64,000 nt of DNA from Nitrospinota bacterium. GTDB lineage: Bacteria > Nitrospinota > Nitrospinia > Nitrospinales > VA-1. Below are positions 15,327 through 32,478 of this stretch, in pieces. The notes under the pieces are model-generated. The model ran no database searches. It was not told the DNA's origin and saw only the letters and a program-made list of their open reading frames with translations. The translations under genes were made by a program, and so were the position numbers. The DNA lies in NCBI GenBank assembly GCA_027619975.1, contig JAQCGX010000016.1, positions 1 to 64,000 of the forward strand, written 5' to 3'. Positions within the stretch are counted from its first letter, which is position 1; every line of letters starts with the position of its first letter.

Positions 15327-15354
15327 TTGACAGACCGCACAAGTCTGTTAAGAT
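15327..15354 (+). promoter_or_regulatory. Putative sigma-70 promoter of the first cobalamin operon
   Basis: A perfect TTGACA (15327-15332) is followed 16 bp later by TAAGAT (15349-15354, 4 of 6 to TATAAT). Transcription would start near 15361, about 20 nt before the conserved part of the cobalamin riboswitch. Confidence 0.55.
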
Positions 15355-15377
15355 TGAGCCAAATTTTCACAACACTA

Positions 15378-15522
15378 TTCAATGTTAAAGGGAAAACGGT
15401 TAAAAACCGTTGCGGACCCGCCGCTGTAACCGGGAACGAACCCTGTCGATACCACTGCTTGTTTTACAAGTGGGAAGGGACAGGAGGTAGGATGATCCGG
15501 GAGCCAGAACACCTGTTTGAAT
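15378..15522 (+). promoter_or_regulatory. Cobalamin riboswitch 1 (B12 element)
   Basis: The order of conserved elements matches the B12-element family. It has AAAGGGAA then CGGTTAAAAACCG, then GCGGACCCGCCGCTGTAA (the conserved CCCGCxACTGTxA core), and GGGAACGA. These are followed by CCACTG...CAAGTGGGAAGG, TAGGATGATCCGGGAGCCAGAACACCTG with the B12 box near 15500-15514. An intrinsic terminator follows 55 nt later, so binding of adenosylcobalamin or a related cobalamin probably causes transcription termination before btuF. Rfam RF00174-type search would confirm the boundaries. Confidence 0.95.
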
Positions 15523-15576
15523 AGTCCTTGCTAACTCTTCGTGGATTGAGGGGTAAAGGGGTTAAGTCACCCGATC

Positions 15577-24104: not shown

Positions 24105-24135
24105 AAACATTTTTAGTTGTAGAAAATTTAACCAA

Positions 24136-24280
24136 ACACGTTCCAGTTTAAGGGAAGCCCGGTGAAATTCCGGCACTGTCCCGCAACTGTAAAGGGAACG
24201 AAAACCGCATTAGTGCCACTTTCTAGCCGGAGGGGAAGGCGCGGTGAGTAGGACGCCCTAAGTCAGAAAACCTTGCTTGA
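24136..24280 (+). promoter_or_regulatory. Cobalamin riboswitch 2 (B12 element)
   Basis: All conserved elements are present in order: TTTAAGGGAAGCCCGGTGAAATTCCGG, CACTGTCCCGCAACTGTAAAGGG, AACGAAA, TGCCACTTTC...GGGGAAGG, GTGAGTAGGACGCCCTAAGTCAGAAAACCTTGC with the B12 box near 24259-24276. No intrinsic terminator follows. A small hairpin covering the ribosome site of btuB lies 26 nt downstream, so control of translation initiation is more likely here than termination. Confidence 0.95.
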
Positions 24281-24305
24281 ACGTAATTTTAAAATCCTTC
24301 GAGAG

Positions 24306-24321
24306 AAAAGGAATCCTTTTG
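24306..24321 (+). promoter_or_regulatory. Ribosome-site hairpin at the btuB start
   Basis: AAAAGG (24306-24311), AAT loop, CCTTTT (24315-24320) forms a perfect 6-bp stem. It hides the only Shine-Dalgarno-like AAGGA and touches the TTG start at 24319-24321. It is the likely OFF-state structure of riboswitch 2, or a local brake on btuB. Confidence 0.5.
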
Positions 24322-26190
24322 CATCGCACATATTTGCGCGTTACCTCATTATTTTGTCTTTTACTAATTTTTTCAGGCACCGCAACAGTTCATGCGGCAG
24401 ACGATACTGTGGAGTTAAAAACTTTATCGGTAACCACCACCAAATCATTGACTGCAGTTGAAGATATCCCTTCTTCCTTAACCATTATTTCGGAGAAAGA
24501 AATAAAAAAGAAACAGTATATTAATGTACTGAGCATTCTTAGAGAAGAACTTGGAATGGAGGTGGTTCAATCGGGGCCCTTGGGAACAGCGACAAGCGTT
24601 TTCATACGGGGAGCCGGGTCAAACTCCACACTGGTTCTCATTGATGGAGTGCAAGTCAATAGCAACACGACGGGGGCTTTTAGTTTTTCCGATCTCACTA
24701 CCGATAATATTGAAAAAATTGAAATTCTTCGAGGACCTCAAAGCACCCTTTGGGGGGCGGACGCCGTGGGTGGTGTCGTCAATATCATCACCAAGCGCGG
24801 AAAAGGAAAACCCACGCATTCGTTTTCATTTGAAGGAGGCAGTTTCGGCACTTTCAAGGAAACCTTAAACAGTGGGGGCGATCTTGATTTTATCGACTAT
24901 TCTGTTTCCGTTTCGCGCACAGACAGCGAGGGTTTCTCCGCCGCTAATGAAAGCCGGGGAAACTCAGAAAACGATGGCTATGAAAATACCACCGTGTCCA
25001 CCCGGTTTGGCCGCAACTTTTTGGATGATGGACGAGTGGATTTCATCGGGCGCTTTACAAGAGGAATTGTAGAGTTTGATGCATTCGGTTTCGTAGATGA
25101 AAAAGGGTTTAGTAAAACCGATTCTTTTTACATGGCACTCCCCATTCAAAAAGGGCTTTCCAGCAAATGGGATCTTAAAATTAACCCCACATATGCATAT
25201 GAATTTCTAAAAACTCTTGACCCTGGAGGGTCTACAAAAAGTTCCCACATTTTCAATCGAACTTACGGGGTGGATGTTCAAAATAATGTAGAACTGAACA
25301 AGTACTTTTCAACAACCTTTGGGTTTGAGCATGAAGTCCGAAACGGAGTCAATGAGTCAAGTGCTTTGCGTAGAACCATTAAGAATAATGGGTTCTATCT
25401 TCAACTCCAAGGTCGGTACGGCAAGCGGATCACTGCGACGGCGGGATTCCGTCATGATATCAATTCAGTATTCGAAGACCCTACAACCAGAAAGTTTGAG
25501 GCCGCCTACCGCATTCTTGAAACAAATACGAGAATTCGAGGTGCTTATGCTACGGGTTTTCGCGCTCCCACCCTTAACGAGCTGTTCTTTCCTGACTTTG
25601 GAACGCCTTCATTGAAACCGGAAAAAAGTAAAAGTTGGGAAGTAGGTCTGGATCAAAATCTACTGGACGATAAAGTAAAAATCGGTATTACCTACTTTCA
25701 TGTGAATTTTGAAAACCTCATCCAAACTGTCGATTTGGGAGGATATGTTTACCGTGCACAAAATGTTGCTAAAGCCACGACAGAAGGTGTGGAAACTTAC
25801 CTCAATATTATTTTACCGAAAAACTTCAGGCTTTCCTCCAATTACACCTGGCTGAAAGCAAGAGATGACGATGGAGCGCCCCTGATCCGCCGTGCCGAGC
25901 ATAATTTTTCCGCTAACTTGACCCACACTTGGAAAGAAAAGCTGGAAACATTGTTGGGGGTACGGGTACGAAGCAATACCCATTCAAACAGTACCGGAAC
26001 TAACAGAACCGGCGGCTTCACAACCATGCGTGCCGCAGTCAGCTATAAGGTCAACAAACATTTAAAATTGACTGCTAGAGGAGAAAATCTTTTTGACAAG
26101 GAATATGAAGAAAACTTTGGATTTGGAACTGCCGGTATATCCGGTTATGGCGGGTTCACCTGGTACTTCAACCCTGCGTCCAACAATTAA
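24319..26190 (+). CDS. btuB: TonB-dependent vitamin B12 receptor
   Basis: Outer-membrane beta-barrel receptor. A signal peptide (LFCLLLIFSGTATVHA) is followed by a TonB-box-like segment (LKTLSVTTTK). The plug domain contains SVFIRGAGSNSTLVLIDGVQVN and IEILRGPQSTLWGADAVGGVVNI. The barrel includes RGAYATGFRAPTLNELF and a C-terminal strand ending in an aromatic-rich FTWYFN motif. I chose TTG at 24319 (AAGGA upstream) rather than a TTG at 24277, which lies inside the riboswitch; that gives 623 residues. B12 specificity is inferred from the riboswitch and the surrounding genes. Confidence 0.9.
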   Translation: MHRTYLRVTSLFCLLLIFSGTATVHAADDTVELKTLSVTTTKSLTAVEDIPSSLTIISEKEIKKKQYINVLSILREELGMEVVQSGPLGTATSVFIRGAGSNSTLVLIDGVQVNSNTTGAFSFSDLTTDNIEKIEILRGPQSTLWGADAVGGVVNIITKRGKGKPTHSFSFEGGSFGTFKETLNSGGDLDFIDYSVSVSRTDSEGFSAANESRGNSENDGYENTTVSTRFGRNFLDDGRVDFIGRFTRGIVEFDAFGFVDEKGFSKTDSFYMALPIQKGLSSKWDLKINPTYAYEFLKTLDPGGSTKSSHIFNRTYGVDVQNNVELNKYFSTTFGFEHEVRNGVNESSALRRTIKNNGFYLQLQGRYGKRITATAGFRHDINSVFEDPTTRKFEAAYRILETNTRIRGAYATGFRAPTLNELFFPDFGTPSLKPEKSKSWEVGLDQNLLDDKVKIGITYFHVNFENLIQTVDLGGYVYRAQNVAKATTEGVETYLNIILPKNFRLSSNYTWLKARDDDGAPLIRRAEHNFSANLTHTWKEKLETLLGVRVRSNTHSNSTGTNRTGGFTTMRAAVSYKVNKHLKLTARGENLFDKEYEENFGFGTAGISGYGGFTWYFNPASNN

Positions 26191-26205
26191 ATAATGAGGA
26201 AAGTC

Positions 26206-26793
26206 ATGAATTCTAATACATCCTTTAAACTAAAACTCCTATTAGGATTGATTGTTTTAATGGTTTTGACGCGCTACATCCATTTTCGTCCACTCGGTCT
26301 CCCAAGTGCGACGTTGGCAATCTTCTTCATTGCCGGTATCTATCTGAGGGAATATATTTTCCCGGCATTGTTAATAGGTTGCGCGGGTCTCATCGATTAT
26401 TTTTCCGTCCAGAGAGAGCCCGCCTGGTGCATTACGTCGGCCTATGGCTTTTTAATCCCAACTTATCTGGCGTTGTGGTTTGGAGGACGGAGATTTCAAA
26501 CCCTTGAAATCACCCAATGGAACCAGGCGGCTTCAATGGCCATCACTTTAGCGATTTGCACCACTCTAGCTTTCGTGATTTCCAACGGAAGCTTTTACGC
26601 GCTTTCCGGTCATGAGGTTTATGAAAGTATGAATTTCATGGAATACGCTCAAAGGCAAATTTCCCGGTTTCCTGGTTATCTGATGAAGCCCTTCCTTTAT
26701 GTGAGCATTGGTTCTGCGCTTCTATATAAAGGGTGGTTGGAGCAGTTTATCAAATCAAGTTCAGCACGAACTTCTTTGGATATTTCTAAATAA
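26206..26793 (+). CDS. btuM: BtuM-type small cobalamin transporter (solitary ECF S-component-like)
   Basis: This 195-residue protein has about six membrane helices. The N-terminal HFRPLGLPSATLAIFFIAGIYLRE resembles the opening of small proteins often labelled 'cobalamin ABC transporter'. BtuM of Thiobacillus denitrificans is one of these; it imports B12 without an ECF module and binds cobalt through a Cys near residue 80 in loop 3. Here a Cys (REPAWCITSAYG) sits at residue 75, or 79 if the upstream ATG at 26194 is used. I prefer 26206, since GAGGAAA lies 5 nt upstream. Assignment rests on pattern and context between btuB and cobB, not on alignment. Confidence 0.75.
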   Translation: MNSNTSFKLKLLLGLIVLMVLTRYIHFRPLGLPSATLAIFFIAGIYLREYIFPALLIGCAGLIDYFSVQREPAWCITSAYGFLIPTYLALWFGGRRFQTLEITQWNQAASMAITLAICTTLAFVISNGSFYALSGHEVYESMNFMEYAQRQISRFPGYLMKPFLYVSIGSALLYKGWLEQFIKSSSARTSLDISK

Positions 26794-28221: not shown

Positions 28222-28776
28222 ATGAGAAAAATGCCTGCTTCAGACAAACGAAAAAGAAAAGGATTGATTATCGTCAATACGGGGGATGGTAAGGGAAAAT
28301 CCACTGCAGCTTTTGGAATTGCTCTTCGAGCCGCAGGCAACAAAATGAACGTTTTCATCATGCAATTTATGAAGGGGAAATGGAAAGCGGGAGAAAAAAA
28401 ATCGTTCGACCTTTTGAAACCCAACGTTGAAATGGTTTCAATGGGTGATGGCTTCACCTGGGACACTGAAAATCCTGAACAAGATCGAGAAACAGCTCGA
28501 AAGGCATGGGAAATTGCTTCTGAAAAATTGAATAGCGGGAAGTATAAAATGGTGATTCTGGACGAAATCAATTATGTCCTGCATTATAATTTTCTTCCCC
28601 ACAAGCTATTTATCGAAGCTCTCAAAAATAAACCCGCCGATGTCCATGTCGTTTGTACAGGACGAAACGCACCGGAGGAGCTGATTGAAATTGCTGATTT
28701 GGTGACAGAAATGCGCTGCATAAAGCATCCTTTCAAGGAACAGGGAATTCCTGCACAAAAAGGTATAGAATTTTAA
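28222..28776 (+). CDS. cobO: Corrinoid adenosyltransferase, CobA/CobO/BtuR type
   Basis: The 184-residue P-loop enzyme transfers the 5'-deoxyadenosyl group of ATP to cob(I)alamin or cob(I)yrinate a,c-diamide. It shows the family P-loop NTGDGKGKSTAAFGIALRA near residue 20, FIMQFMKGKWKAGE, and VILDEINYVLHYNF. It has the CobA-type fold, unrelated to PduO or EutT. Only 8 bp separate it from cobB, the preceding pathway step. Confidence 0.95.
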   Translation: MRKMPASDKRKRKGLIIVNTGDGKGKSTAAFGIALRAAGNKMNVFIMQFMKGKWKAGEKKSFDLLKPNVEMVSMGDGFTWDTENPEQDRETARKAWEIASEKLNSGKYKMVILDEINYVLHYNFLPHKLFIEALKNKPADVHVVCTGRNAPEELIEIADLVTEMRCIKHPFKEQGIPAQKGIEF

Positions 28777-28813: not shown

Positions 28814-30280
28814 ATGAACCTCACGGTATTTAAAAAATATTTTAAGGCCCACCCTCTTATACACACCATCGCCCTCTCGGCGACAGTGCATTTAATAGCC
28901 TTTTATTTTTTTCCCACCTGGGACAGCCCTTCCAAACTTGACAAAGACAATTTGATCAAAATAAAATATGTTTTGGAGAAAAAAATACCCTCTGAGGAGA
29001 AAGTTTCCCCAGAATCCAAAAAAATAGTTGAGCTAAAGAAGGTTGCGCCGCCCCCCACACACACAATGGTTAGCCCCAACCGAATACCGAAGTCTGCTAT
29101 AATAAAAAGCACAGAAGTTTTTCCACTCTCCCATTCTGCAAAAAGAAACCCTGTGCCGATTCGCAACTCAGAGAAACTATTGCAACCTGTGAATACGATT
29201 CTAAAACAAACTCCTGTTAATCACCCGGTTGCGGAATATAAGAGGACGACCCCGCTCGAGATTTCTCAGGCAATTCTACCGTCTCCCCGCATGATCCGGG
29301 AGGCCCATCCGAACCAGAACACACCCGTCCCTTTGACGCAACTGGCGATGCAGTCGAAGGATACGAATGATTCATTAATTAAACACTTCCAAAACAAATC
29401 TTTTCAGCCCGTTCCAAGGTTAATAAAGTCTTCCGCTTCCACTAAAGCAGCTTCCCTTAATTCAACCGTTCAAGCGAAAAGTTTTACGGAAGTGAAGTAT
29501 GAAAGTTCTCAAAAATTCACTTCCCTCGCTTCAGCCCAATTAAATATTGAAAATAGTTTCCTGCTAAAAACTACAGCCATCCAAAAACCTTTACCTGTTA
29601 CGCTTGTTGGAATGCCAACAACCCATCAACCGGTAGCTGGAATAAATAGTGTGTCTATTGCAGGGATACCAAACCCATCGACTGCCCTCAAGGTAATGAA
29701 ACCGCAAGTCTTGAATAAGCCGTGGCAAGCAGTGGGAACCCAGGCGCGGGCTTCAAAAAGTTTAGACTCGGAATCAGTCGCTCACTACCAGCCTTCAATT
29801 CCGATCGCCGCAAGCAATTTTTCCTCGCCGTTACAAAGCACCCGTCTTCTAAAGGAAGCCTTCATTCCTCCCGGTTTTTCCGAAGAAAAGCTCAACCAGG
29901 ATGAAGAGGTTAGTACCAGGCCAATTGAAAAGCTGGCCCGCCTCAGTGACGGAATCAGTGACCTTTCGTCTGCGTTGTTGAACCAAATTAAAAATGGGTT
30001 TTCCGCAAAGATTAGGAACCGGATCGCCCAGGTAAAATATTACCCGCGCATTGCCCGCAGTCGGGGGTTCGAGGGACAACCCGTGGTCGCGTTTACCTTG
30101 GGAAACGGAGGAGAACTGTTGGAACTTTCTATTGTGAACCCTTCCCCTTTTAAACTGTTGGATGAGGCCGCTCTGGACGCCGTTAAATCCGCGAGCCCCT
30201 ATCCCCCAATCCCAGAACTTCTAAAAATAAATTCCATGAAATTCAACTTACCGATTTCCTTTATGCTGGAGGAGCGATGA
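28814..30280 (+). CDS. tonB: TonB-family energy transducer
   Basis: The 488-residue protein has a single N-terminal membrane helix (about residues 15-33, LIHTIALSATVHLIAFYFF). A very long Pro/Lys/Ser-rich periplasmic linker (about 35-380) follows, and then a C-terminal TonB domain with KNGFSAKIRNRIAQVKYYPRIA-type start, GQPVVAFTL, and AALDAVKSASPYPPIP. It should couple the inner-membrane proton motive force to BtuB. It is about twice the length of E. coli TonB, mostly linker. No exbB or exbD lies in the window. The start of the next gene overlaps its stop. Confidence 0.88.
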   Translation: MNLTVFKKYFKAHPLIHTIALSATVHLIAFYFFPTWDSPSKLDKDNLIKIKYVLEKKIPSEEKVSPESKKIVELKKVAPPPTHTMVSPNRIPKSAIIKSTEVFPLSHSAKRNPVPIRNSEKLLQPVNTILKQTPVNHPVAEYKRTTPLEISQAILPSPRMIREAHPNQNTPVPLTQLAMQSKDTNDSLIKHFQNKSFQPVPRLIKSSASTKAASLNSTVQAKSFTEVKYESSQKFTSLASAQLNIENSFLLKTTAIQKPLPVTLVGMPTTHQPVAGINSVSIAGIPNPSTALKVMKPQVLNKPWQAVGTQARASKSLDSESVAHYQPSIPIAASNFSSPLQSTRLLKEAFIPPGFSEEKLNQDEEVSTRPIEKLARLSDGISDLSSALLNQIKNGFSAKIRNRIAQVKYYPRIARSRGFEGQPVVAFTLGNGGELLELSIVNPSPFKLLDEAALDAVKSASPYPPIPELLKINSMKFNLPISFMLEER

Positions 30281-31002
30281 AATCTAAAATACAGATTACA
30301 TTTTTCTTATTGCTGACGATTTTTACATCCAGCGCCTATGGCGAAATTCTTCAGATCGACGGTGATTTTGATGGCAAATTGGACCAATGGCACGAAATGT
30401 CCCAGGAAGGGAAATTGGTCAAAATTGAATACGACACCAATGGCGACGGAAAACTGGATCAGGTCGATATTTATGAGGGCCATAAAAAACCCGTCCTTGC
30501 CAAACTGGATCGCAATTTTGATGGAACGCTGGATCAGTTCCAATTTTATACCAAGGAGTTCACCTTGGAGCGGATCGAAAAAGATTCAAAGTTCAACGGT
30601 AAGGTGGACAGGAAAGAATTTTTCGATTCAAATCAAAAAATATCCCGCATTGAAATAGATGAAAATCAGGATGGCAATATGGATATTTTTCAATTTTTTA
30701 ATGATAACGAAAGTTTGGTTCGGATAGAGTATGATTCCAGCCATAGCGGTAAAATCGATCGTTGGGAATATTTTGCAGGAGAAAAATTGCTTCAGTCCGC
30801 CGCTTTCGATTCCAATGAAGACGGAAAACAGGATCAATGGCAATACTTTAAGGATTCCACGAAACCGGAAAAGGTTGAGTATGACACCAACTTTGACGGG
30901 AAGGCTGATCGCTTGGAATACTTTGAACCTGACGGCGGGCTGGTGCGTGTGGAGCTGGACAGAAATTACGACGGCATAACAGACTTGATCAAACGCAAAT
31001 AA
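30277..31002 (+). CDS. Exported protein of nine exact 25-residue DxDxDG repeats
   Basis: After a signal peptide (residues 1-22, ending SSAYG) the whole 241-residue protein is nine tandem units. The loop-initial Asp is at 28, 53, 78, 103, 128, 153, 178, 203 and 228, an unbroken period of 25. The consensus is D-x-N-x-D-G-K-x-D-x-W/F-x-Y-F...L-x-R-I-E-Y. The first half resembles EF-hand/dockerin or thrombospondin-3 type calcium loops (ligands at 1, 3, 5 and 9), but the twelfth-position Glu is mostly absent. Units 4 and 6 have lost one Asp. It overlaps the tonB stop as ATGA. It probably binds Ca2+ or another divalent ion in the periplasm; its role in B12 uptake is unknown. Confidence 0.85.
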   Translation: MKSKIQITFFLLLTIFTSSAYGEILQIDGDFDGKLDQWHEMSQEGKLVKIEYDTNGDGKLDQVDIYEGHKKPVLAKLDRNFDGTLDQFQFYTKEFTLERIEKDSKFNGKVDRKEFFDSNQKISRIEIDENQDGNMDIFQFFNDNESLVRIEYDSSHSGKIDRWEYFAGEKLLQSAAFDSNEDGKQDQWQYFKDSTKPEKVEYDTNFDGKADRLEYFEPDGGLVRVELDRNYDGITDLIKRK

Positions 31003-31014
31003 CGGGAGTTGATA

Positions 31015-31410
31015 ATGACAGTTTTTCGGGGGTTGATCTATTTTTTGATTCTATTCATTGCCTCCTGCGCGCCACAAGCCACCAAAGAGGTTCCGGCTGA
31101 GTTTCAACCAGGGCAGAAAATTTTCCATAAAGTTTGTTCCAATTGTCATGGGCCCGACGCTATGGGCAAGCACACCGAGGCCCCCCGGCTCATTGATGTT
31201 GAATATATTCAGGAAAGTTTTTCCGATGCTGATATTTTCCAAACCGTCGTTGCAGGTGACAATAAAATGCCTTCGCAAAGAAGCAAGGTATCGGATGAGG
31301 AAATAAAAGAAATCATCAAATACCTTCGTTACTCTCAGAAAGCTGCAAATCTCGTTGCTGAGGACGAAGGTGATGAAGAAAAAACCTTAGAAGAAGAGAG
31401 CCCTCAGTAA
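31015..31410 (+). CDS. Mono-heme cytochrome c lipoprotein
   Basis: This 131-residue protein has a signal peptide ending in a good lipobox (LFIASC). A class I cytochrome c domain follows: FHKVCSNCHGPDAMG (heme CxxCH), a distal Met in NKMPSQ and a C-terminal helix IKEIIKYLRYSQ. The tail is acidic (EDEGDEEKTLEEE). I chose the ATG at 31015, with GGGAG 6 nt upstream. It lies 12 bp after the repeat protein and 3 bp before cobT, so it belongs to the B12 operon. Its electron partner is unknown; a role in redox handling of cobalamin or in powering BluB is only a guess. Confidence 0.88.
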   Translation: MTVFRGLIYFLILFIASCAPQATKEVPAEFQPGQKIFHKVCSNCHGPDAMGKHTEAPRLIDVEYIQESFSDADIFQTVVAGDNKMPSQRSKVSDEEIKEIIKYLRYSQKAANLVAEDEGDEEKTLEEESPQ

Positions 31411-31413
31411 TTC

Positions 31414-32478
31414 ATGCCAGCATCGATCCAGAAAACCCTGGACCAAATCCTGCCTGTTGACGTCAGCGACCTGGATAAAGCCCAAAGACGGCTGGACTCC
31501 CTGACAAAGCCTCCGGGAAGCCTGGGACGACTGGAAGAACTGGCTCGTCGATATGTCGCCATCAAAGGCATCGACTCTCCCTCAATTACAAAGAAATGTG
31601 TTTTTATTTTTGCTGCGGATCATGGCATTGCCAAGGCAGGAGTCAGCGCCTATCCGCCTGAAGTGACGGCGCAAATGGTACAGAATTTTTTGCAAGGCGG
31701 CGCCGCCATTAATGTTCTGGCCAAACACGTCTCTGCAGAAATTGTGGTCGTCGATATCGGAGTGAACTTCGATTTTCAGAACTGCCCCGGATTGACTCAC
31801 AAAAAAATCGCTCCCGGCACGAAAGACATGTCTGCGGGGCCCGCTATGACCCGCCAGCAGGCGGAAGAGGCATTGCAGACAGGAATTGAGCTGGCACAAG
31901 ATTCGGCGGACAAAGGAACGGATGTTATCGCTTCTGGGGATATGGGAATCGGCAACACCACCCCCGCCGCCGCCATCATGTCCGTCTATGGCAACAAAAC
32001 ACCCCGGCAGGTTGCCGGAAACGGTACGGGCATTGATTCGGCGACCCTTGAAAAAAAGATCCACCTGATTGAACAGGCCATCAAAATAAACCATCCCAAT
32101 GCAAAGGACCCCATTGACGTTCTTGCCAAGTTGGGCGGATTCGAAATCGCAGGAATCGCCGGACTCATTCTTGGCGCCGCATCCAAAAGGACTCCCGTCA
32201 TCATCGACGGGCTGATTTCAGGAGCCGCCGCCATCATCGCCTATAAGCTGAATCCCATCGTTAAAGACTATATCTTCACCTCCCACCGATCCCAGGAACC
32301 CGGCCACGAGATTTTATTTCACCTGCTGGATCAACCGCCATTGTTTGATTTCGGCATGAGACTGGGAGAAGGAACCGGGGCCGTTTTAGCCATGAGCATC
32401 CTGGATGCCTCCATCAAAATCTATTCGCAAATGGCTACCTTTGAGGAAGCGGGGGTCTCCTCCAAAGTCGATTCTTGA
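31414..32478 (+). CDS. cobT: Nicotinate-nucleotide:dimethylbenzimidazole phosphoribosyltransferase
   Basis: CobT makes alpha-ribazole phosphate from DMB and nicotinate mononucleotide for CobS. The 354-residue protein has the opening LDSLTKPPGSLGRLEELA, IFAADHGIAKAGVSAYP, the phosphate-binding GDMGIGNTTPAAAI, and a late LGEGTGAVLAM with the catalytic Glu candidate. These match the family at normal length. It is the last gene of the second B12 operon and accepts the product of the BluB half of the fusion in the first operon. Confidence 0.96.
   Translation: MPASIQKTLDQILPVDVSDLDKAQRRLDSLTKPPGSLGRLEELARRYVAIKGIDSPSITKKCVFIFAADHGIAKAGVSAYPPEVTAQMVQNFLQGGAAINVLAKHVSAEIVVVDIGVNFDFQNCPGLTHKKIAPGTKDMSAGPAMTRQQAEEALQTGIELAQDSADKGTDVIASGDMGIGNTTPAAAIMSVYGNKTPRQVAGNGTGIDSATLEKKIHLIEQAIKINHPNAKDPIDVLAKLGGFEIAGIAGLILGAASKRTPVIIDGLISGAAAIIAYKLNPIVKDYIFTSHRSQEPGHEILFHLLDQPPLFDFGMRLGEGTGAVLAMSILDASIKIYSQMATFEEAGVSSKVDS

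What the first reader, a model, noticed from the sequence alone, without database searches (positions are those of the whole stretch)
30277..31002. Exported protein made of nine perfectly periodic 25-residue DxDxDG units, coupled to tonB
Loop-initial Asp residues occur at 28 + 25n for n = 0 to 8 without one insertion or deletion (75-bp DNA period), although the units have diverged in sequence. That means strong structural selection for an exact solenoid. The ATGA overlap with tonB and position in a B12 operon point to a new accessory factor, possibly a Ca2+- or corrinoid-binding periplasmic rod bridging TonB and BtuB.
Basis: partly seen in the sequence, partly recalled or inferred. Interest (0 to 1): 0.65.

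Follow-up and report, generated by a model that had tools for sequence, protein, structure and literature searches.

The report
Calcium-loop repeat protein paired with TonB
Next to the gene for TonB, the protein that powers nutrient uptake through the outer membrane, this bacterium carries a gene for a secreted strip of nine calcium-binding-type hairpins; the pairing recurs with several different uptake systems and in two bacterial phyla, so it looks like an undescribed TonB partner and not a vitamin B12 factor.

Summary
ORF 30277-31002 encodes a 241-aa exported protein with nine units exactly 25 residues apart (D28+25n). It overlaps tonB by ATGA inside a cobalamin-riboswitch/btuB operon. Seven of nine loops fit Dx[DN]xDGxxD; the unit-4 loop is non-canonical in nearly all relatives. 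AlphaFold predicts an 18-strand single-layer antiparallel beta-meander (pLDDT 88), closest to OspA and YD/RHS sheets, not a helical solenoid.

The B12 reading is not supported. The family (nine units in all 67 relatives aligned) occurs in all 28 good genomes of the order (Nitrospinales, my naming). It lies in B12 clusters, but also in two exbB-exbD-exbD-tonB arrangements and with a siderophore-type receptor plus PepSY protein. Some btuB-tonB loci lack it; some B12 clusters keep it without btuB or tonB. TonB is the recurring neighbour: TonB_C in 49 of 65 upstream genes, -4 overlap in 14 loci, matching deep groups in both trees. In a second, deltaproteobacterial phylum, ~1000-aa versions directly follow a TonB-domain gene in 29 of 30 loci.

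Best explanation: a dedicated periplasmic, calcium-stabilised partner of particular TonB lineages, independent of substrate. Pairing is well supported; Ca2+ binding and contact with TonB are inferred. No description was found in papers searched.

The parts
24127..24294 (+). cobalamin riboswitch in front of the operon
   Evidence: Rfam RF00174, 77.9 bits vs gathering 31.5
24277..26190 (+). btuB-like TonB-dependent receptor (the true start is probably downstream of the listed TTG)
   Evidence: Pfam TonB_dep_Rec_b-barrel and Plug; best NCBIfam TonB-B12 TIGR01779, 290 bits, below its 599.7 cut-off
28222..28776 (+). btuR/cobO corrinoid adenosyltransferase
   Evidence: Pfam PF02572 6.5e-69
28814..30280 (+). 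tonB (488 aa, TonB_C at residues 408-484), overlapping the repeat gene by ATGA
   Evidence: Pfam TonB_C 53.6 bits vs 24.6; overlap read from sequence
30277..31002 (+). the finding: exported 241-aa protein of nine 25-residue Dx[DN]xDGxxD hairpin units
   Evidence: homologues; model
30277..30342 (+). putative Sec signal peptide (residues 1-22, AYG|E)
   Evidence: read from sequence; low-confidence N-terminus in the model
30358..30384 (+). loop 1 DGDFDGKLD; canonical in 67/67 relatives
30433..30459 (+). loop 2 DTNGDGKLD (canonical)
30508..30534 (+). loop 3 DRNFDGTLD (canonical)
30583..30609 (+). loop 4 DSKFNGKVD; non-canonical in all 32 B12-type, 24 Exb-type and 3 PepSY-type relatives
30658..30684 (+). 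loop 5 DENQDGNMD (canonical)
30733..30759 (+). loop 6 DSSHSGKID (degenerate here, variable in relatives)
30808..30834 (+). loop 7 DSNEDGKQD (canonical)
30883..30909 (+). loop 8 DTNFDGKAD (canonical)
30958..30984 (+). loop 9 DRNYDGITD; canonical in 67/67 relatives
31009..31410 (+). small c-type cytochrome, next gene in all 33 B12-type loci
   Evidence: Pfam Cytochrome_CBB3 1.2e-13; synteny
31414..32478 (+). cobT (NaMN:DMB phosphoribosyltransferase)
   Evidence: Pfam PF02277 1.9e-138

Best explanation
The gene encodes a Sec-exported, calcium-stabilised beta-hairpin strip that works as a dedicated partner of the TonB encoded just upstream. Shown: it is linked to, translationally overlapping with and co-inherited with particular TonB lineages, whatever substrate the linked receptor handles, and the same gene order recurs in a second phylum. 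Inferred: Ca2+ occupies the Dx[DN]xDGxxD loops on one edge of an antiparallel beta-meander and stiffens it in the periplasm. Also inferred: the strip contacts TonB (its long linker or C-terminal domain) and guides, stabilises or positions it under its receptors. Its place next to tonB recalls TtpD2, the TPR protein of the Vibrio TonB2 operon. In this genome one copy serves the B12-regulated TonB and a second serves the exbBDD-tonB operon.
For: TonB_C domain in 49 of 65 genes directly upstream. By similarity a tonB lies upstream in 53 of 70 loci: 24/33 B12-type, 25/25 ExbB-containing, 3/3 PepSY-type. A -4 overlap with the upstream gene occurs in 14 loci of several genera. Architectures: tonB-REP-cytc-(cobT); receptor-BNR-exbB-exbD-exbD-tonB-REP; receptor-BNR-tonB-REP-exbB-exbD-exbD; receptor-PepSY_TM-tonB-REP. 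The REP and TonB_C trees show the same main groups, with the PepSY-type pair nested inside B12-type in both, while three sampled TonBs without the gene form a separate long branch. Present in 28/28 genomes over 90% complete of the order (28 of 31 in the phylum, the other three belonging to other orders). A deltaproteobacterial phylum has ~1000-aa repeat proteins directly after a TonB-domain gene in 29/30 loci, Pfam TonB_2 over cut-off in 7 of 10 tested, with exbB and exbD beside them in the three loci examined. Precedent for extra essential Ton proteins: TtpB2 and TtpD2 (PMC6957404).
Against: No physical or genetic interaction is shown. Nine of 33 B12-type loci and most of the TlpA/porin-type loci have no adjacent tonB yet keep the gene. 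Most sampled genomes of the order also have a TonB without the gene. Three genomes keep btuB-tonB in the B12 cluster without it. Repeat number differs greatly (9, 12, dozens), which argues against a fixed-length ruler. TonBs with and without the gene both have basic, proline-containing linkers, so charge complementarity is not specific.
Confidence: 0.52

Rival explanations
1. Metal-handling periplasmic protein: the acidic Dx[DN]xDG array buffers or hands on metal (Ca2+, lanthanide, iron) that comes in through the linked receptors, as lanmodulin does beside the lut receptor system.
For: Acidic (pI about 4.5-4.7); weak motif-level hits to lanmodulin; linked receptors are metal-chelate types (B12, siderophore).
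Against: Loops sit in a predicted beta-meander, not EF-hands. Several of the nine loops are often degenerate. The linkage follows tonB, not one substrate. Lanmodulin scores far below its cut-off (20 vs 135 bits).
Confidence: 0.2
2. Dedicated B12-uptake factor: it binds corrinoid or bridges TonB and BtuB.
For: Lies in a cobalamin-riboswitch operon between tonB and cytc-cobT; the B12-type clade occurs across families.
Against: Homologues in non-B12 Ton operons. Of 39 genomes, 9 have the clade-A gene without a btuB orthologue, 6 have btuB without the clade-A gene, 24 have both and none neither: no positive association. G042 and G048 have btuB-tonB-cytc with no room for the gene.
Confidence: 0.06
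3. Partner of a redox or envelope process of the cluster (the adjacent cytochrome c or, elsewhere, a TlpA-like thioredoxin), with tonB linkage secondary.
For: The cytochrome c follows in all 33 B12-type loci, more often than tonB precedes; TlpA/porin linkage in another clade.
Against: No cytochrome found in the ExbB or PepSY contexts; no cysteines or haem motif in the protein; the cytochrome stays when the gene is lost.
Confidence: 0.1
4. Generic exported calcium-stabilised repeat filler whose operon position carries no functional meaning.
For: Similar repeats occur as lipoproteins away from tonB (L047, L155) and in families such as DUF6802 and Lsa25.6.
Against: Recurrent tonB adjacency in several architectures, parallel trees, purifying selection, second phylum.
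Confidence: 0.1

Closest known systems
TtpB2/TtpC2/TtpD2 accessory proteins of the Vibrio TonB2 system (PMC6957404)
   Same: Extra proteins encoded with exbB-exbD-tonB; TtpB2 and TtpD2 are needed for that TonB's function and TtpD2 is a repeat (TPR) protein
   Different: TPR or leucine-zipper proteins; no Dx[DN]xDG hairpin array
TolB / CpoB of Tol-Pal (PMC12204202)
   Same: Periplasmic proteins encoded in the operon of a TonB-related force transducer
   Different: TolB is a Rossmann plus six-bladed beta-propeller protein that mobilises Pal; this genome has a separate TolB_N/PD40 gene beside an ExbB-type and a TonB_2 gene
Dx[DN]xDG calcium-binding motif proteins (PMC3123361), incl. integrin-type calcium blades
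   Same: Same liganding pattern in a loop between beta-strands
   Different: Predicted fold is an open meander, not a propeller; nine in-register units
OspA single-layer beta-sheet and YD/RHS/teneurin sheets
   Same: Best PDB fold matches to the model (2fkj TMq 0.53; RHS shells E about 1e-5)
   Different: About 10-13% identity only; calcium loops of this kind are not a feature of those families (from general knowledge)
Lsa25.6 family (NF050087) and DUF6802 (PF20615)
   Same: Best sequence-profile matches; repeat-level similarity
   Different: Window protein is below both curated cut-offs (34 vs 150 bits; 26.5 vs 27)
Lanmodulin LanM
   Same: Periplasmic metal-binding protein with similar Asp-rich loops, linked to a TonB-dependent receptor system (PMC9260416 abstract)
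   Different: Helical EF-hand protein of about 130 aa; weak motif-only hit

Membership tests
EF-hand / lanmodulin | Helix-loop-helix around the loop | tested here: not met
   Model is all beta, 18 strands; EF-hand and LanM profiles below cut-off
Dockerin type I | Match to PF00404 over its cut-off | tested here: not met
   21.9 vs 22.9 bits, no stretch significant on its own
Lsa25.6 family adhesin (NF050087) | Equivalog cut-off 150 bits | tested here: not met
   34.3 bits, 35.8-58.9 in paralogues
DUF6802 (PF20615) | Gathering score 27 | tested here: not met
   26.5 bits for the window protein; a second-phylum long protein reaches 32.4
Dx[DN]xDG calcium-binding motif (structural motif) | Asp1, Asp/Asn3, Asp5, Gly6, acidic 9 | tested here: met
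   7 of 9 loops here; loops 1 and 9 in 67/67 relatives
Dx[DN]xDG calcium-binding motif (structural motif) | Bound Ca2+ | not testable with these tools
   Needs calorimetry or crystallography
Ton-system component | Encoded with tonB/exbB/exbD across lineages | tested here: met
Ton-system component | Required for TonB-dependent uptake or bound to TonB | not testable with these tools
   Needs mutants and pull-downs
B12 uptake factor | Confined to or co-occurring with btuB/B12 loci | tested here: not met
Beta-helix solenoid | Parallel stacked coils | tested here: not met
   Best fold matches are antiparallel single-layer sheets, on a confident but single-method model

The most novel reading that the evidence does not exclude
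A so far undescribed, cross-phylum class of Ton-type force-transduction machines contains a dedicated calcium-loaded beta-hairpin array as a working subunit beside TonB. It is short (nine units) in Nitrospinota and about 1000 residues long in the second phylum, so TonB action there would be coupled to a calcium-dependent periplasmic scaffold.
Probability: 0.35. Interest if true: 0.8.

Novelty: new variant of a known kind. Interest (0 to 1): 0.58.

Why it matters
How TonB crosses the periplasm and passes force to receptors is still debated, and the standard ExbB-ExbD-TonB set is treated as sufficient outside a few cases such as Vibrio TonB2. A calcium-loop repeat protein that travels with TonB in marine Nitrospina kin and in deltaproteobacteria would be a new accessory part, and its genetics could be tested in a culturable relative. 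It also offers a function for genes that lie in conserved operons but reach no curated family cut-off.

Tried and rejected
EF-hand, dockerin and lanmodulin membership: profiles below cut-off and an all-beta model. Corrinoid/BtuB bridge: no positive co-occurrence with btuB, natural losses. Electrostatic pairing of an acidic strip with a basic TonB linker: TonBs without the gene have similar linker charge, so it is not diagnostic. Fixed-length periplasmic ruler: nine units are the rule in the order, but L104 has 12 in-phase positions and the second phylum has dozens. Recent tandem duplication: TRF finds nothing, and unit i of clade A matches unit i of clade B best in six of eight cases, so the array predates the paralogue split. 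Paper searches found no description of the family, but only open-licence papers are searched.

Full report
Observation. The ORF at 30277-31002 is real and has the stated regularity: nine Asp at 28+25n, with Gly at loop position 6 and Asp at loop position 9 also 9/9. Self-similarity at lags 25, 50, 75 and 100 is at least 15 times the largest value in 1000 shuffles. Units are only about 31% identical and no DNA tandem array is detected, so this is an ancient array held by protein-level selection. Relatives show dN/dS of about 0.04-0.2. The loop is Dx[DN]xDGxxD; seven of nine fit here. The gene starts inside the tonB stop (ATGA) and lies in a run of co-directional genes after a cobalamin riboswitch.

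What the protein is. No curated family reaches its cut-off; the nearest are DUF6802 (26.5 vs 27 bits) and Lsa25.6 (34 vs 150). AlphaFold2 with a 17-sequence alignment gives an all-beta model (18 strands, pLDDT 88.3, pTM 0.76). Foldseek's best whole-length match is engineered OspA (TMq 0.53), among RHS/teneurin YD-repeat sheets. I read this as a single-layer antiparallel meander with a calcium-type loop at every second turn. The liganding pattern is that of the Dx[DN]xDG motif of PMC3123361. Ca2+ binding itself is inferred. Across 67 aligned relatives loops 1 and 9 are always canonical.

Distribution. The genome belongs to Nitrospinota (named relatives); the order name Nitrospinales is mine. 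The family is in 52 of 77 genomes of the phylum and in 28 of the 31 that are at least 90% complete and at most 5% contaminated; the three without it belong to other orders, so every good genome of this order has it. Positive genomes hold one to four matches. A tree shows two old groups, B12-type (A) and Exb-type (B), each spanning several families, with a PepSY-type clade inside A. Nine units are kept in all 67 aligned; 33 of 536 steps deviate from 25 by 1-2 residues.

Context. I read flanks of 70 loci. A tonB lies upstream in 53. Pfam finds TonB_C in 49 of the 65 genes taken as directly upstream. The contexts are B12-type tonB-REP-cytc-(cobT)-dapL-folK, two exbB-exbD-exbD-tonB arrangements with a TonB-dependent receptor and a BNR protein, and a siderophore-type receptor (TIGR01783, 229.8 vs 223.5 bits) with a PepSY_TM protein. 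A smaller clade sits by a TlpA-like thioredoxin and a porin, mostly without tonB. The -4 overlap recurs in 14 loci. The TonB_C tree shows the same deep groups as the REP tree, while three sampled TonBs without the gene form a separate long branch; the TonB_C tree has few columns and many weakly supported forks, and two rows labelled A_REPlost in it (L057, L104) do have the gene and were only outside the length filter.

Against a B12 role. G042 and G048 have btuB-tonB-cytc-dapL-folK with no room for the gene, and in G044 btuB and tonB adjoin on a contig without it. Nine of 39 genomes, two of them 97-98% complete, keep the clade-A gene but have no btuB orthologue at E<=1e-60; six have btuB without the clade-A gene. 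In nine B12-type loci tonB is missing next to the gene. So neither btuB nor B12 explains its distribution.

A second phylum. A weaker hit in a deltaproteobacterial MAG (L047) led to its phylum. There, 43 of 284 genomes carry a related repeat protein, about 1000 aa long where full-length. In 29 of 30 loci examined a TonB-like C-terminal domain gene ends directly upstream on the same strand; the exception lies at a contig edge. The search profile was seeded partly with three of these loci. Pfam's own TonB_2 model is over cut-off in 7 of 10 tested, and exbB and exbD adjoin in the three loci examined. Two shorter lipoproteins there are not next to tonB.

Interpretation. The simplest account is a dedicated partner of particular TonB proteins, independent of substrate. 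Adjacency, overlap, parallel duplication and the cross-phylum recurrence are shown. Location in the periplasm, Ca2+ occupancy and contact with TonB are inferred. Vibrio TonB2, where the TPR protein TtpD2 and TtpB2 are essential (PMC6957404), shows that such extra Ton parts exist. A metal-buffering role is the main rival.

Noticed in passing
window 15344-15534: A second cobalamin riboswitch (RF00174, 96.8 bits), about 9 kb upstream of the btuB one.
   Followed up: no
window 26194-26793: A 199-aa membrane-type protein between btuB and cobB without any good Pfam or NCBIfam match, conserved next to btuB in G008 and G014; a candidate inner-membrane B12 or cobalt transport part.
   Followed up: partly
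L152, L153, L154 and L156-L185: Second-phylum loci with a TonB-domain gene followed by a roughly 1000-aa Dx[DN]xDG hairpin-array protein (exbB-exbD beside it in L152-L154); repeat protein present in 43 of 284 genomes searched.
   Followed up: partly
L104 around 8001 (minus strand): A B12-type relative with 12 in-phase repeat positions, beside a 645-aa TonB, the longest one seen.
   Followed up: no
L048 3586-4887: A BNR_2-like protein sits between the TonB-dependent receptor and the exb/tonB genes in most Exb-type loci; function unknown, possibly part of the same uptake system.
   Followed up: no
L106, L107, L108: In one genus the repeat gene follows a porin-like and a TlpA-like thioredoxin gene, with no tonB nearby.
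   Followed up: partly
window 31009-31410: A small c-type cytochrome follows the repeat gene in all 33 B12-type loci and stays after tonB when the repeat gene is lost; its role in a cobalamin cluster is unclear.
   Followed up: no
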